A stretch of DNA of 64,000 bases from Elusimicrobiota bacterium. GTDB lineage: Bacteria > Elusimicrobiota > Elusimicrobia > UBA1565 > UBA9628. Positions 21,360 through 43,108 of this stretch are shown here, one piece after another (within the stretch, counting starts at the first letter, position 1; every line of letters begins with the position of its first letter). The stretch lies in NCBI GenBank assembly GCA_016191335.1, contig JACPOW010000018.1:1-64000 (forward strand), read 5' to 3'. The notes under the pieces are model-generated. The model saw nothing but the letters and a program-made list of their open reading frames with translations. It searched no databases and was not told the origin of the DNA. The position numbers and the translations under genes were made by a program.

Positions 21360-21690
21360 AGTATGGCGATATTATAAGGCCGAGGCAGGAGAGCACGAGG
21401 CCGATGACGGGCAGGTTCGGGTTCGGGTCGCGGCCGTTCTCCTTGAGCCAGCCGTACAGCTCGGCGCCCATCTTGTACTCGTAGTAGATGTGGTACAGGC
21501 CGCAGGTAATCATGGAAAGGAGCAGCCACGGGACGAACTTGAACTCCTCGCGGCCGAGCAACGCGTTCATCGCCAGGAACTGACGGTAGTTCCAGTAGAT
21601 GTTGTAGATCCCGCACGTGATGATGGACAGGACGATGCCCATCGCGATCTCGATGTGATGCTCGGACGACAGCGGCTTGTCGGTGGTCAT
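21310..21690 (-). CDS. DUF4234 membrane protein with C-terminus read through the tRNA gene
   Basis: The 126-residue protein has the DUF4234 layout: MGIVLSIITCGIYNIYWNYR (helix 1 with the CGIYxIYW motif), a second LLLSMITCGLYHIYYEYK helix and a third at PVIGLVLSCLGLII. Function is unknown; members are small inner-membrane proteins. After LGLII the expected family end is absent: the last 19 residues (SPYLRDGEMV and on) are encoded by the tRNA-Gln sequence. Either the gene naturally runs into the tRNA, or an integration event replaced its 3' end. The true stop is 21310-21312. Confidence 0.75.
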   Translation of the reverse strand: MTTDKPLSSEHHIEIAMGIVLSIITCGIYNIYWNYRQFLAMNALLGREEFKFVPWLLLSMITCGLYHIYYEYKMGAELYGWLKENGRDPNPNLPVIGLVLSCLGLIISPYLRDGEMVSQRTLNPLF

Positions 21691-21732
21691 GGGTGGAGTA
21701 TGCCACGGGCGCGCGCCCCCGTCAAGACGCGG

Positions 21733-23676
21733 TCAGCGGGCGGCGGGGACGGCGACGATCGCGGACCAGGCGGCGCGCGCGGTGTCGGCGAAGTGGAACA
21801 GGGACAGGTCGCCGGAGGAGATGAGGCCCATGCGGGCGAACTCGTCGAAATCCAGGATCTTGTCCCAGTACTCCTTCTCGCCGACGAGGACGATCGGCAC
21901 GCGCGGCATCTTGCCGGTCTGCATCAAGGTGAGGACCTCGAAGAGCTCGTCCATCGTGCCGAAGCCGCCGGGGAAGTAGACCAGGCCCATCGAGCCGTGG
22001 CGCAGGGCCATCTTGCGCGTGGAGAAGTTCGTGAACTCGAACTCCAGGCCGGGGGTGGCGTAAGGGTTCAAGCCCTGCTCGTGGTCGAGGATGATGTTGT
22101 AGCCGACGCTCGGGCCCTTGGCCTCGAAGGCGCCGCGGTTGGCGGCCTCCATGATGCCGGGCCCGCCGCCGGAGACGACGGCGATCTCGCCGCCGCCCTC
22201 CTGCGCGACGAGGGCGCCGAACTGGCGCGCGATCTCGTAGTACTTGGACATCTCGACGGCCTGCTGCGCGGCGTACACGAGCTTGCGCTCCTCGGGGCGC
22301 TTGGGCTTGCGGCCGTATTTCTCGACGAGGGCCTCGAGCCGGGCGCGGGCGTCGGCGGGCTGGAGGATGCGGGCGGAGCCGTAGACGGTGACGGTCGCGC
22401 GCACGCCGGCGGCGCGCAGGCGGCGGGCGGGCTCGGTCAGCTCGCGGACGATGACGTCGGGGTCGGGCATGGCCGCCAGGGCGAGGGCGTTCGGGACGAG
22501 GAAGCGGGCGGCGGGCTTGGCGAGCGGAGCCGCGGCCTTCGCGGTCCGCTTGGCGCGCAGGCGCGGCCCTTCGACGTTGAACAGCCCGTCCTTGCCGCGG
22601 ACGAAGACCTGGCGGTCCTTGCCCGCGTAAACCGAGACGCTGGCGAGGCCGAGGGGAGCGCCGGTGCGGACGTAGTCGTTGATGATCCCGCGGACCTCGT
22701 CGACGGGGACGACGTCGCGGGACTCGAGATTGATCGCGGCGGCGCCGGGAGCCAGGCGGTGGCGCGTCGCGTGGGCGAGGACCTGCTCGTTGGCGTGGGC
22801 GAGCTGGACCTTGAGCTCGCCGCCGGGGAAGAGGCTCTTCATCTCGGTGACGACGCCCTCGACGATCAGGTCGGGGGTCTTGCCTTCCTCGCGGATGACG
22901 AGCTGGAGGTCCTTCGCGTGCAGCTGGATCTTGCGGATCAGGGCGGCCTCGTGGGCCTGGACCTCGGGGAGGTGCTCGGCGAGCTCGGGGCGGCCGGACA
23001 GGTCCACGGCGCGGAAGCTGTCGCCCTTCGAGTCGCGGTAGACGCGCAGGTCGAGGTGGCCGATCTTGTCCCACTTGGACGCGAGCTCGTTGATGAAGTG
23101 CTCGGTGTTCGGCGTGTGGGGGATGACGCCGCTCGCCTCGCGGGCGTTGTGCAGGCGGACGACCGAGACGCTCTTCGCGCCGAGAGGGAGAGGAAGGGCG
23201 GCCGGCTCGGAGTTCTCGAGGGCGGAGCGCGCGGCGGCGCCGTCGAAGGCGGCGGCCGCGGCGTCCGCGTCCGACATGCCGACGAGGCGGCCGAGGTCCT
23301 TGAGGCTCGTGCCCGCGGGCTGAGGCCGGCCGGCGTCCTTGGAGGGAGCCGGGACGGGGAAAGACAGCGCGGCCGGCACGGCCGCGGCGGCCGAGGGTAT
23401 CGCCGACGCGGCGAGGGCCGGAATCGGCGCGAGCGCCGTGGGCGAGAGGGACGGAGCCAGCGACGGCGCGATCGACGGGGCCGAGAGGCCGGGGGCGGAC
23501 GGCAAGGTCAGGGCGGGGCCCGAGAACGAGGGCGCCAGGCCGGGCGAGAGGACGGGAGAGAAGGACGGGACGACCGAGACCGAGCCGGGGACGGCGGCGC
23601 GGACCTGGGCGGAGGCGGGGGCGGCGGAGCCGAGGGCCAGGAGCGCCGAGAGCAGCAATCGCATTCGCATCCTCAT
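21733..23676 (-). CDS. LOG-family protein with signal peptide, low-complexity region and CdiA-tRNase-like middle domain
   Basis: The 647-residue protein has three parts. A signal peptide (MRMRMRLLLSALLALGSAAPASA) is followed by an Ala/Pro/Ser-rich region to about residue 125. Residues about 180-350 contain KTPDLIVEGVVTEMKSL, a D...ExK pattern resembling the CdiA C-terminal tRNase/PD-(D/E)xK domain. The C-terminal 230 residues are a TIGR00730-type LOG domain with GGGPGIMEAANRG and PGGFGTMDE, the nucleotide-binding and catalytic signatures of cytokinin-riboside/nucleotide phosphoribohydrolases. An exported LOG enzyme is unusual, since LOG enzymes act on cytoplasmic nucleotides. GGAGG upstream of the ATG supports the start. 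Confidence 0.7.
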   Translation of the reverse strand: MRMRMRLLLSALLALGSAAPASAQVRAAVPGSVSVVPSFSPVLSPGLAPSFSGPALTLPSAPGLSAPSIAPSLAPSLSPTALAPIPALAASAIPSAAAAVPAALSFPVPAPSKDAGRPQPAGTSLKDLGRLVGMSDADAAAAAFDGAAARSALENSEPAALPLPLGAKSVSVVRLHNAREASGVIPHTPNTEHFINELASKWDKIGHLDLRVYRDSKGDSFRAVDLSGRPELAEHLPEVQAHEAALIRKIQLHAKDLQLVIREEGKTPDLIVEGVVTEMKSLFPGGELKVQLAHANEQVLAHATRHRLAPGAAAINLESRDVVPVDEVRGIINDYVRTGAPLGLASVSVYAGKDRQVFVRGKDGLFNVEGPRLRAKRTAKAAAPLAKPAARFLVPNALALAAMPDPDVIVRELTEPARRLRAAGVRATVTVYGSARILQPADARARLEALVEKYGRKPKRPEERKLVYAAQQAVEMSKYYEIARQFGALVAQEGGGEIAVVSGGGPGIMEAANRGAFEAKGPSVGYNIILDHEQGLNPYATPGLEFEFTNFSTRKMALRHGSMGLVYFPGGFGTMDELFEVLTLMQTGKMPRVPIVLVGEKEYWDKILDFDEFARMGLISSGDLSLFHFADTARAAWSAIVAVPAAR

Positions 23677-23752
23677 GAGAATAGCCTCCTATGTAAGGAA
23701 GCGCTTGGGCCCTCGGGCCCCTCTTTTCCCGGCAAAAGTCCTAGACGCGTCC

Positions 23753-23781
23753 TTGACGGATGGCGGCGCGAGCCGTACACT
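23753..23781 (+). promoter_or_regulatory. Promoter of the first response regulator (leaderless type)
   Basis: TTGACG (23753-23758), a 17-base spacer and TACACT (23776-23781) are followed by only 8 bases before ATG 23790, so transcription should begin at or next to the start codon. No Shine-Dalgarno is present. Confidence 0.65.
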
Positions 23782-23789
23782 AGGCGGTA

Positions 23790-24224
23790 ATGGCCAAGAT
23801 CCTGGTGATCGACGACGAGCAACCCATCGTGGAGCTGCTCAGCCTGCGCCTGACCGAGGCGGGGCATCAGGTGGTGGTCGCGATGGACGGCTTGTCGGCG
23901 CCGATGATCGCCTCGCGCGAGAAGCCGGACCTGGTCATCCTCGACTTCAACATGCCCGCGGCCAACGGGGCGAAGGTCCACGAGCGCCTGCGCGGCAACA
24001 CCTTCACGGCCACCACGCCGATCATCTTCCTGACGGCGTCGCCGATCGGGCAGGTCATGCCGCAGGTCAAGGACGACGACATCACGCGCTTCCTGCAAAA
24101 GCCGGTCGACTTCCCCCTTCTGGCCAAGATGATGGCCTCCTTCCTGCCGGGCTCGACGCCTCCGCCGGCGGCGCCCGCCGCCGCGCCGCCGCCCCCGCCG
24201 CCGGACATCCTCGACCTCGACTGA
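23790..24224 (+). CDS. Single-domain response regulator with Pro/Ala tail
   Basis: The 144-residue CheY-like receiver has the acidic pair Asp8-Asp9 in VIDDEQP, phospho-acceptor Asp52 in VILDFNMP, Thr in FLTAS and Lys in LQKP. The final 25 residues are a Pro/Ala run ending DILDLD. There is no output domain, so it must act by protein contact or as a phosphate sink. No histidine kinase is in the window. It is followed 50 bases later by a second receiver with its own promoter. Confidence 0.9.
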   Translation: MAKILVIDDEQPIVELLSLRLTEAGHQVVVAMDGLSAPMIASREKPDLVILDFNMPAANGAKVHERLRGNTFTATTPIIFLTASPIGQVMPQVKDDDITRFLQKPVDFPLLAKMMASFLPGSTPPPAAPAAAPPPPPPDILDLD

Positions 24225-40300: not shown

Positions 40301-43108
40301 ATGAAAATCCGTCTTTCCCGCGTCATCGCCTCCGTTCTCGTCGCCGCCCTCGTCCTCGGCGCGCCCGGCTCGCAGGCCTGGGGCCAAGTCGCCGCGTCGG
40401 CCCGCGCCGGATCGGCCGCCGGCATCAAGGGACCCGTCCTGTCGCTCACCCCCGCCGCCGGCTCCTTCACGGCCCCCGCTCTGACCTTGTCCGCGCCCTC
40501 GCTCGCCGTCCCGACCCTCGCTCCGGCGCCGGCGGCCTTGGTCGCCGTGACGCCCGTCGCGGCAAAGCCCGTCGCCGTGAAAGCCGCGGTGCCCGCCGAG
40601 CTCATCCCCGCGCTCGACGCCGCCCGTCCCGCCGCGCCCGCCGCCGGCGACAAGAACGACGGGCCGATGGGCCGCCTCGCCTCTTTGTTCGACGGCCTGA
40701 AGGCCCGCCGCCCAGCGGTCGACGCGGTCGACGCCGGCTCCCCGAGCGACGCGCCGCGCGGCCCCGAGCTCGGCCGCCCCCAGCCCGCCCGCTCCGCGCT
40801 CGCCTCATCGAAGCGCCCCGCGCACAAACCCTTCGTCCCCGCGACGCGAGTCGTCGCCGCGATGGAGAAGCTCCTCGAGACCGACCCCGCGGCCGCGCTG
40901 AAGTCCGCCTCAGCCGCGATCGTCGACGAGAAGGAGCGCCGCTCCGAGGTGAAGATCGGCGCGCAGCGCATACTCGACGCCCTGCCCATCGCGAAGACCC
41001 TCACGCACTACCTCGACCTGCTCACCCTCGCCTCCCGCCCCGGCGTCCAGACCTCGAAGGAGCTCGGCATCGACCCCTGGTGGTATCTCCAGCGCACCGC
41101 GCTCAAGCGCCTCGCCCGCGAGGCCGATTTCCTGAAGCCCGGCTCGCCCGCGCTGGTCGACCTGCTCAAGACGGCCTACAAGGACCGCAACGCCTCGGTG
41201 CGCCTCGCCGCCGCCGACGCCCTGACCGCGCTCGGAGCGGACCCGGGCCCCGAGGTCAGCTACGAGCCCGCCCGCACCGCCCCGGCTCCGGTCATGACGC
41301 CCGCCCCGGCCCCCTCCGCGCCGCAGGCTCCGAAGAAGAAAGGCTCGTGGCTGCCGATGATCATCCTCTTCTCCGCGCTCGCCGGCTGGTGGGCGTTCAG
41401 CAACAACGCGCCCTCGACCCGGCCCCCCGCGAACCCGCCCGCGATCTCGCAGACGATCACCGCCCCGGACTCGGTCAAGGCTCCGGCCGCGGCCGACTCC
41501 GTCAAGGCGGACCCGAAGGACGCGGCCCTCGAGCAGATCGCCCGCGACACCAAGCGGACCGCCGACGCGGCGGAGCGCTCGGCGAAGGCCGCCGAGGAGA
41601 TGGCCAAGCCCAAGGGCACCAGCATGGGCTCCATCCTGATGATGCTCGCGATGGCGATCCTGCCCATCTTCCTGCTCGTCTGGCTCATGAAGAAGATGAT
41701 GGGCGGCGGCGGCGGCGCGGCCGGCGGCATCAACACCAAGCCCAAGATGGACCTCGAGAAGCCGACGGCGCGCTTCGACGACGTGGCCGGCATCGACGAG
41801 AGCCTCGTCGAGGTCCAGGAGATCATCGATTTCCTGCGCGAGCCCGCCCGCTTCAAGAAGCTCGGCGCGCGCATGCCCAAGGGCATCCTGATGGAAGGCC
41901 CTCCCGGCACCGGCAAGACCTTGCTCGCCCGGGCGCTCGCCGGCGAGACCTCGGCGACCTTCATCTCGATCTCCGGCTCCGACTTCGTCGAGCTGTACGT
42001 CGGCATGGGCGCGCGCCGCGTGCGCGAGCTGTTCGAGACCGCGCGCCAGAACGCGCCGGCCATCATCTTCATCGACGAGATCGACGCGGTCGGCAAGAAG
42101 CGCGGCGACGGCGGCCCCGGCAGCGGGAGCAACGACGAGCGCGAGCAGACGATCAACCAGATCCTCAAGGAGATGGACGGCTTCGACAACTCCTCCGGCG
42201 TCCTCGTCGTCGCCGCGACCAACCGCGCCGACACCCTCGACGCGGCGCTGACGCGCCCCGGCCGCTTCGACCGCAAGATCCACGTCGGCCTGCCCGAGGC
42301 CATGGGCCGCGAGGCGATCCTGGCCCTGCACGCGCGGAAGGCGCGCCTGGCCGCCGAGGTGGACCTGCGCCTGATCGCCCGCCGCACCGCGGGGCTCTCC
42401 GGCGCGTTCCTCGAGAACGTGATCAACGAGGCGGCCCTGCTCGCCGCCCGCCGCGGGGCGGACTCCATCAACGGCGCCGACATCGACGAGGCCGTGGACC
42501 GCGCCACGATCGGCGGCAAGCGCTCCCTGCGCCTGTCCGAGCCGCTCAAGCGCCGCATCGCGGCGCACGAGGCGGGCCACGTGCTGGCCAACCTGCTCAA
42601 CGAGAACGCCGAGGTGCGCGTGCCCGTCAACAAGGTCACCATCATGCCCCACGGCTCGGGCGCGCTCGGCTTCGCCGAGTCCGGCAGCGAGGAAGGCGAC
42701 AAGTACCTGTACACCCGCGCCGAGCTCGAGGCGCGCCTCGACACCGCCCTCGGCGGCCTCGTCGCCGAGAAGATCTTCTACGGCGAGTGGTCCACCGGCC
42801 CCGGCTCGGACCTCGAGTCGGCGACGCGCGTGGCGCGGGCGATGGTCCAGCAGCTCGGGATGAGCGAGGAGATGGGCCTCGCGCAGACCGCCCCGAACCA
42901 GTACGGCCAGAGCGCCTTCGGCGGCGAGGCCGACGCGAAGGCCCTCGTCGAGGTCAACAAGCTGCTCAAGGCGTCCATGGAGCGGACCGAGGCGCGCCTG
43001 CGCGCCGGGGCGGAGAAGCACAAGGCGATGATCGAGGCCTTGATGGTCAAGGAGACGCTCTCCGCCGACGAGATCGAGGCCATCGCGCACCCGAAACCCA
43101 AGCGTTAA
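40301..43108 (+). CDS. ftsH: FtsH-type AAA+ membrane metalloprotease with large exported N-terminal extension
   Basis: The 935-residue protein carries an FtsH core in residues 490-930: Walker A GPPGTGKT at about 534-541, Walker [12 protein letters not shown], the SRH motif [12 protein letters not shown], zinc motif HEAGH at 756-760 and the third ligand in [16 protein letters not shown]. FtsH degrades membrane and regulatory proteins. Before the core are a signal peptide, an Ala/Pro-rich stretch, a helical repeat-like domain (about 180-320), transmembrane helices near 348-366 and 445-463, and a coiled coil between. The usual FtsH periplasmic domain is about 80 residues, so this extension is atypical. 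ATG 40301 has CAGGGG upstream. Confidence 0.88.

What the first reader, a model, noticed from the sequence alone, without database searches (positions are those of the whole stretch)
21733..23676. LOG domain fused to an exported, CdiA-tRNase-like module
A signal peptide and Ala/Pro-rich stretch precede a domain with PDLIVEG...TEMKS, which looks like a D...ExK nuclease core of the CdiA C-terminal tRNase group, followed by a nucleotide-hydrolysing LOG domain. Exported nuclease plus nucleotide phosphoribohydrolase would be a nucleic-acid scavenging or toxin arrangement not described to my knowledge.
Basis: partly seen in the sequence, partly recalled or inferred. Interest (0 to 1): 0.6.

Follow-up and report, generated by a model that had tools for sequence, protein, structure and literature searches.

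The report
Exported nuclease-like domain fused to LOG
In one lineage of uncultured Elusimicrobiota, a protein with an export signal joins a nucleic-acid-cutting type of domain (a distant cousin of a bacterial-warfare toxin domain) to an enzyme that splits nucleotides, which looks like a two-step tool for taking nucleic acids apart and has not been described as far as I could find.

Summary
In detail: window 21733-23676 (-) encodes 647 aa with a signal peptide, an Ala/Pro-rich leader, a middle domain (about 160-372) and a LOG domain (409-640). The middle domain belongs to a family found in 25 of 58 genomes searched, all relatives of the window's organism, with invariant HE...TPD...ExK...A..Q...H. 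Plain Pfam gives only a sub-threshold CdiA_C hit (E 0.026), but profile-profile comparison with CdiA_C (PF18451) proteins gives 92.9% (score 48 against at most 20.5 in 200 shuffles). [quoted passage not shown] Foldseek against the PDB did not confirm the fold. The LOG domain is type-II-like with its catalytic motif intact. The middle domain also occurs without LOG, or with a guanyl-type RNase; the same genome holds a second leader-bearing nuclease joined to a SLOG domain. This favours exported nucleic-acid/nucleotide breakdown over a classical toxin, though toxin use is not excluded. The tRNase label is unproven. The leader is not toxin-specific: it heads many unrelated proteins, including an FtsH-type ATP-dependent protease in this window, which is unexplained.

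The parts
21733..23676 (-). Whole gene: leader + PD-(D/E)XK-like domain + LOG, 647 aa
   Evidence: homologues 48-91% identical over most of the length in 12 other genomes of the genus
23605..23676 (-). Predicted Sec signal peptide, residues 1-24
   Evidence: sequence; not tested by a dedicated predictor
23227..23604 (-). Ala/Pro/Ser-rich leader, residues 25-150, with 'AAFDGA' near its end
   Evidence: similar leaders head many unrelated proteins of the genus
22561..23199 (-). Middle domain, residues 160-372: PD-(D/E)XK-like, divergent CdiA_C relative
22834..22878 (-). Residues 267-281, TPDLIVEGVVTEMKS: TPD (D269) and ExK (E278, K280) motif, predicted strands 2-3
   Evidence: T, P, D, E, K invariant; position in model
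21757..22452 (-). LOG domain, residues 409-640 (type-II-like), with SGGGPGIMEAANRGA, STRKM and PGGFGTMDE
   Evidence: catalytic Arg and PGGxGTxxE motif as in PMC4979012
21310..21690 (-). DUF4234 membrane protein (PF14018, E 4.6e-17), 42 bp downstream, same strand; candidate operon partner
   Evidence: DUF4234 next to 13 of 18 nuclease-LOG fusions and none of the unfused loci read

Best explanation
A lineage-specific exported two-domain enzyme for taking nucleic acids and nucleotides apart outside the cytoplasm. The signal peptide and leader take it across the inner membrane (inferred). The middle domain, a PD-(D/E)XK nuclease of the CdiA_C-related group, cuts DNA or RNA with a metal ion (fold and motif supported here, activity inferred). 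The LOG domain hydrolyses nucleoside 5'-monophosphates to free base and ribose 5-phosphate (motif intact here; activity known for LOG proteins). Free bases could then be taken up (inferred). If the LOG part forms hexamers as in type-II LOGs, the nuclease domains would be gathered on that scaffold (inferred). My estimates: anatomy and family assignment about 0.85; nuclease activity about 0.7; extracytoplasmic scavenging as its purpose about 0.45.
For: Family-wide invariant HE...TPD...ExK...A..Q...H at 28-54% identity. Profile-profile match to CdiA_C proteins over the HE-TPD-ExK-A..Q-DL stretch: 92.9%, E 3.8e-7; best of 200 column shuffles 2.4%, score 20.5 against 48.1. [quoted passage not shown] that core defines PD-(D/E)XK (PMC9086364). 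Viral fold library: top hits are phage portal/minor capsid proteins, probability 0.96-0.99 but E only 0.011-0.031; a PD-(D/E)XK protein is at rank 9 with probability 0.51. LOG motifs intact, best matches 9us2, 5zi9, 5wq3 and 1wek; the last two are type-II LOGs (PMC5379747). A relative (L057) carries a PF00545 ribonuclease instead of LOG, E 7.8e-13. A second leader protein of this genome joins an Exo_endo_phos nuclease to a SLOG domain; other leader proteins include PLD-like repeats and an M28 peptidase.
Against: No PDB structure of a PD-(D/E)XK enzyme was found with confidence; the top hits were acetyl-CoA carboxylase AC3-AC5 at TM 0.44. LOG normally works on cytosolic nucleotides, and nothing here shows that mononucleotides are produced. 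The leader also heads proteins that should need ATP (FtsH-type protease, acyltransferase/AMP-binding enzyme), so 'leader means periplasm or outside' is itself uncertain.
Confidence: 0.45

Rival explanations
1. An exported toxin or effector used against other cells: the CdiA_C-like domain cuts tRNA or DNA in the target and LOG depletes its nucleotides; the DUF4234 membrane protein next door may be an immunity or delivery partner.
For: Relationship to the CDI toxin domain family; swapping of the C-terminal partner between LOG, RNase and none resembles polymorphic toxins; DUF4234 follows 13 of 18 nuclease-LOG fusions.
Against: The nuclease-like domain is internal in the LOG and RNase fusions, not C-terminal; no CdiB, Rhs, T6SS or pretoxin part was seen in the protein; present in 13 of 19 genomes of the genus; no relatives found on plasmids or viral contigs; the leader is shared with ordinary enzymes.
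Confidence: 0.25
2. The middle domain is a nuclease-derived nucleic-acid-binding or regulatory domain that lost catalysis, and LOG is the only enzyme.
For: PD-(D/E)XK-like folds are often reused (general knowledge); no confident PDB fold match.
Against: All motif residues expected for catalysis are invariant, also in copies that stand without LOG.
Confidence: 0.12
3. The leader does not mean simple Sec export: it marks a set of proteins for some other place that holds ATP and nucleotides, and this protein works there on nucleic acids.
For: Leader-bearing FtsH-type AAA/M41 protease in this window (40301-43105), PlsC plus AMP-binding protein, L-amino-acid-ligase plus MFS, TLC/MFS-like transporters; the FtsH core begins with KKKGSW before its first membrane segment, the usual inside-facing arrangement; paralogues of LOG matching only the LOG part, and a shorter FtsH (601-aa frame, not read), exist in the same genome.
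Against: The signal peptide itself looks entirely ordinary; membrane topology was judged only by hydropathy and charge; ATP need is inferred from family.
Confidence: 0.15

Closest known systems
CdiA_C, PF18451 (contact-dependent growth inhibition CdiA C-terminal domain; PD-(D/E)XK fold)
   Same: Shared HE...TPD...ExK...A..Q...DL pattern by profile-profile alignment; same predicted core order
   Different: Below Pfam's cut-off; extra N-terminal half of about 75 residues; internal rather than C-terminal; Sec leader instead of a CdiA/Rhs/T6SS carrier; no known immunity gene
Type-II LOG (CgLOGII 5WQ3, TtLOGII 1WEK; TIGR00730/PF03641)
   Same: Full-length domain match, PGGFGTMDE and RK motif intact
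   Different: Carries a signal peptide and a nuclease-like domain in front
BP1253, a LOG protein of Bordetella pertussis described as putatively exported (PMC6864091)
   Same: A LOG domain predicted outside the cytoplasm
   Different: No nuclease-like domain mentioned in the passages read; its location rests on a putative membrane helix
Leader + Exo_endo_phos + SLOG protein of the same genome (L178:1885-4773 -)
   Same: Same leader type, a nuclease followed by a SLOG/LOG-type domain
   Different: Unrelated nuclease (endonuclease/exonuclease/phosphatase family); SLOG cluster-4 type with PGSAGSIQE in place of PGGxGTxxE

Membership tests
[quoted passage not shown]
   Predicted order H10-20 E26-29 E38-41 E44-51 H57-75 E80-86, pLDDT 91; a prediction, not a solved structure
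PD-(D/E)XK nuclease superfamily | Conserved catalytic Asp and Lys (with a Glu/Asp) at the right places | tested here: met
   D, E and K invariant in 19 and in 12 sequences, placed before strand 2 and in strand 3
PD-(D/E)XK nuclease superfamily | Structural match to a solved member | tested here: inconclusive
   No match with E <= 0.001 in the PDB for the domain or its core; MUS81-EME1 and a restriction-endonuclease-like protein only at probability 0.08-0.20
PD-(D/E)XK nuclease superfamily | Metal-dependent nuclease activity | not testable with these tools
   Needs an assay
CdiA_C (PF18451) | Score over Pfam's curated cut-off (26.6 bits) | tested here: not met
   15.2 bits for the domain alone, E 0.026; 6 of 19 members match weakly, best E 0.0018
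CdiA_C (PF18451) | Homology by profile-profile comparison with proteins over that cut-off | tested here: met
   92.9%, E 3.8e-7; reversed control 0.1%, 200 shuffles at most 2.4%
CDI / polymorphic toxin system | Toxin domain at the C-terminus of a large carrier, with delivery machinery | tested here: not met
   Domain is internal, behind a signal peptide and leader
CDI / polymorphic toxin system | Dedicated immunity gene next to the toxin | tested here: inconclusive
   DUF4234 membrane protein follows 13 of 18 fusions; its role is unknown
CDI / polymorphic toxin system | Growth inhibition of a target | not testable with these tools
   Needs an experiment
LOG (TIGR00730 / PF03641) | Curated score cut-off | tested here: met
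   107 against 96.35 bits; 99.4 against 27 bits
LOG (TIGR00730 / PF03641) | PGGxGTxxE motif and catalytic Arg/Glu | tested here: met
   PGGFGTMDE and STRKM aligned with solved LOGs; residues as in PMC4979012
LOG (TIGR00730 / PF03641) | Phosphoribohydrolase activity | not testable with these tools
   Needs an assay

The most novel reading that the evidence does not exclude
The leader marks a whole set of enzymes, some with apparently leaderless paralogues in the same genome (LOG, FtsH), for a place other than the cytosol that nevertheless offers ATP and nucleotides, such as an unusual compartment or a prey or host cell; the nuclease-LOG protein is the nucleic-acid-dismantling tool of that set.
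Probability: 0.12. Interest if true: 0.85.

Novelty: new variant of a known kind. Interest (0 to 1): 0.47.

Why it matters
It would add an exported, non-CDI branch to a nuclease family known mainly from toxins, and pair it with a nucleotide-splitting LOG domain, an arrangement I did not find described. It suggests a base-scavenging route in uncultured Elusimicrobiota and gives a simple testable pair of activities. The shared leader, seen even on an FtsH-type protease, raises a question about where these proteins go.

Tried and rejected
Plain Pfam, NCBIfam and PDB sequence searches of the middle domain gave nothing significant. The Osteoregulin, ATPase_2 and Radical_SAM hits of single members are taken as chance. 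Whole-domain and core fold searches of the PDB were not decisive; the acetyl-CoA carboxylase AC3-AC5 hits were set aside as topology look-alikes (TM 0.44, rmsd 6.6). Mobile-element origin: no relatives in viral contigs or plasmids at the sensitivity used. The nineteen-row alignment had no stretch usable for the contig scan; a nine-row subset was used instead. The large plus-strand ORF over the same bases (21490-23790) was set aside because the minus-strand product is conserved. dN/dS beyond the closest pair is not reliable at this G+C.

Full report
Check. Residues 1-24 look like an ordinary signal peptide, 25-150 are an Ala/Pro/Ser-rich leader, 160-372 a middle domain and 409-640 a LOG domain (PF03641 E 2.4e-28; TIGR00730 107 bits against a cut-off of 96.35).

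The middle domain is a family. Searching 58 relatives and aligning gave 25 copies in 25 genomes; a pattern-based scan of 84,980 species genomes returned 11 loci, all titled Elusimicrobia or Elusimicrobiota. That scan used one peptide pattern, so distant relatives elsewhere could be missed. In 19 copies the invariant residues are D, P, H-E, T-P-D, E-x-K, A, Q, H and G.

Which family. Pfam's CdiA_C model touches the window domain only weakly (15.2 bits, E 0.026, cut-off 26.6), and 6 of 19 members, best E 0.0018. To test further I took CdiA_C proteins from other Elusimicrobiota genomes, aligned twelve, and compared profiles: 92.9% probability, E 3.8e-7, over HE...TPD...ExK...A..Q...DL. Two hundred column shuffles of that alignment never exceeded 2.4% or score 20.5 (real 48.1), and the reversed one gave 0.1%. 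I therefore call the domain a divergent relative of CdiA_C, not a member at Pfam's cut-off.

Fold. [quoted passage not shown] Foldseek against viral proteins put phage portal and minor capsid proteins first (probability 0.96-0.99, E 0.011-0.031), with a PD-(D/E)XK protein at rank 9 (probability 0.51). Foldseek against the PDB found no confident PD-(D/E)XK match. The fold claim thus rests on topology, motif and profile homology; it is probable, not shown.

LOG. The domain matches solved LOG proteins (9us2, 5zi9, 5wq3, 1wek) and keeps PGGFGTMDE and the Arg-Lys pair; 5WQ3 and 1WEK are hexameric type-II LOGs (PMC5379747). LOG proteins hydrolyse AMP to base and ribose 5-phosphate, with Arg and Glu proposed as catalytic residues (PMC4979012). 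Paralogues matching only the LOG part exist in these genomes.

Architectures. Of the 25 copies, 18 are followed by LOG and 7 are not. Of the seven, one (L057) ends in a PF00545 ribonuclease, E 7.8e-13, two (L053, L054) end in a short extra tail without a Pfam match, and the rest have nothing recognised. Several genomes have leader plus LOG without the middle domain. In the window's own genome another leader protein joins an Exo_endo_phos nuclease to a SLOG domain (L178:1885-4773); the nuclease was found in 10 further genomes, the joined SLOG in only one of them (G015). Nuclease plus LOG-type domain has thus been put together at least twice behind this leader. A DUF4234 membrane protein follows 13 of the 18 nuclease-LOG fusions on the same strand and none of the other loci read.

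Mechanism. I favour export followed by nucleic-acid cleavage and nucleotide splitting, at 0.45 for the whole account. Export, activity and purpose are inferred. The toxin account (0.25) is kept alive by the family relationship and the partner swapping, and weakened by the internal position of the domain and the lack of delivery parts.

The leader. Similar leaders head many proteins: about 19 plausible cases by eye in 1.2 Mb sampled from one complete genome of the genus, two of the sampled stretches having been chosen because of earlier hits. They include Rce1-like proteases, MFS and TLC-like transporters, an L-amino-acid-ligase/MFS protein, an M28 peptidase, and in this window an FtsH-type AAA/M41 protease. 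The FtsH core keeps the usual inside-facing start (KKKGSW before the first membrane segment) behind what looks like an exported leader, which I cannot explain; leader-FtsH is seen in other genomes of the genus. Literature searches found no description of this leader or of a nuclease-LOG fusion; the library holds open-licence papers only. A putatively exported LOG is known in Bordetella pertussis (PMC6864091).

Verdict. Real, conserved and correctly spotted; the nuclease reading is probable, the tRNase and toxin labels are unproven; a new combination of known parts.

Noticed in passing
window 40301-43105 (+): 935-aa FtsH-type protein (AAA E 4.1e-44, Peptidase_M41 E 8e-39) with the same signal peptide and A/P-rich leader in front; the usual topology of its core conflicts with an exported leader. 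A shorter FtsH (601-aa frame) is in the same genome.
   Followed up: partly
L178:4827-7481 (+), own genome: Leader + PlsC acyltransferase + AMP-binding enzyme, divergent neighbour of the leader + Exo_endo_phos + SLOG gene.
   Followed up: partly
L179:1919-4879 (-), own genome: Leader followed by repeated PLD-like domains in one 987-aa frame.
   Followed up: no
L151:17566-19389 (+), L152:1186-4323 (-): Leader-bearing TLC/MFS-like transporter (TLC E 4.2e-09) and L-amino-acid-ligase/MFS protein in a complete genome of the genus.
   Followed up: no
L174:1-15634: Group of six leader-bearing genes on one strand (M28 peptidase, PDDEXK_1, MFS, possible site-2-type protease and others).
   Followed up: no
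L057:3398-5107 (+): Relative with a PF00545 guanyl-type ribonuclease in place of LOG; a barstar-like neighbour was not searched for systematically.
   Followed up: partly
L091, L095: Proteins with a hydrophobic start, membrane segments and a CdiA_C domain over the cut-off in which the ExK position reads HDCY.
   Followed up: no
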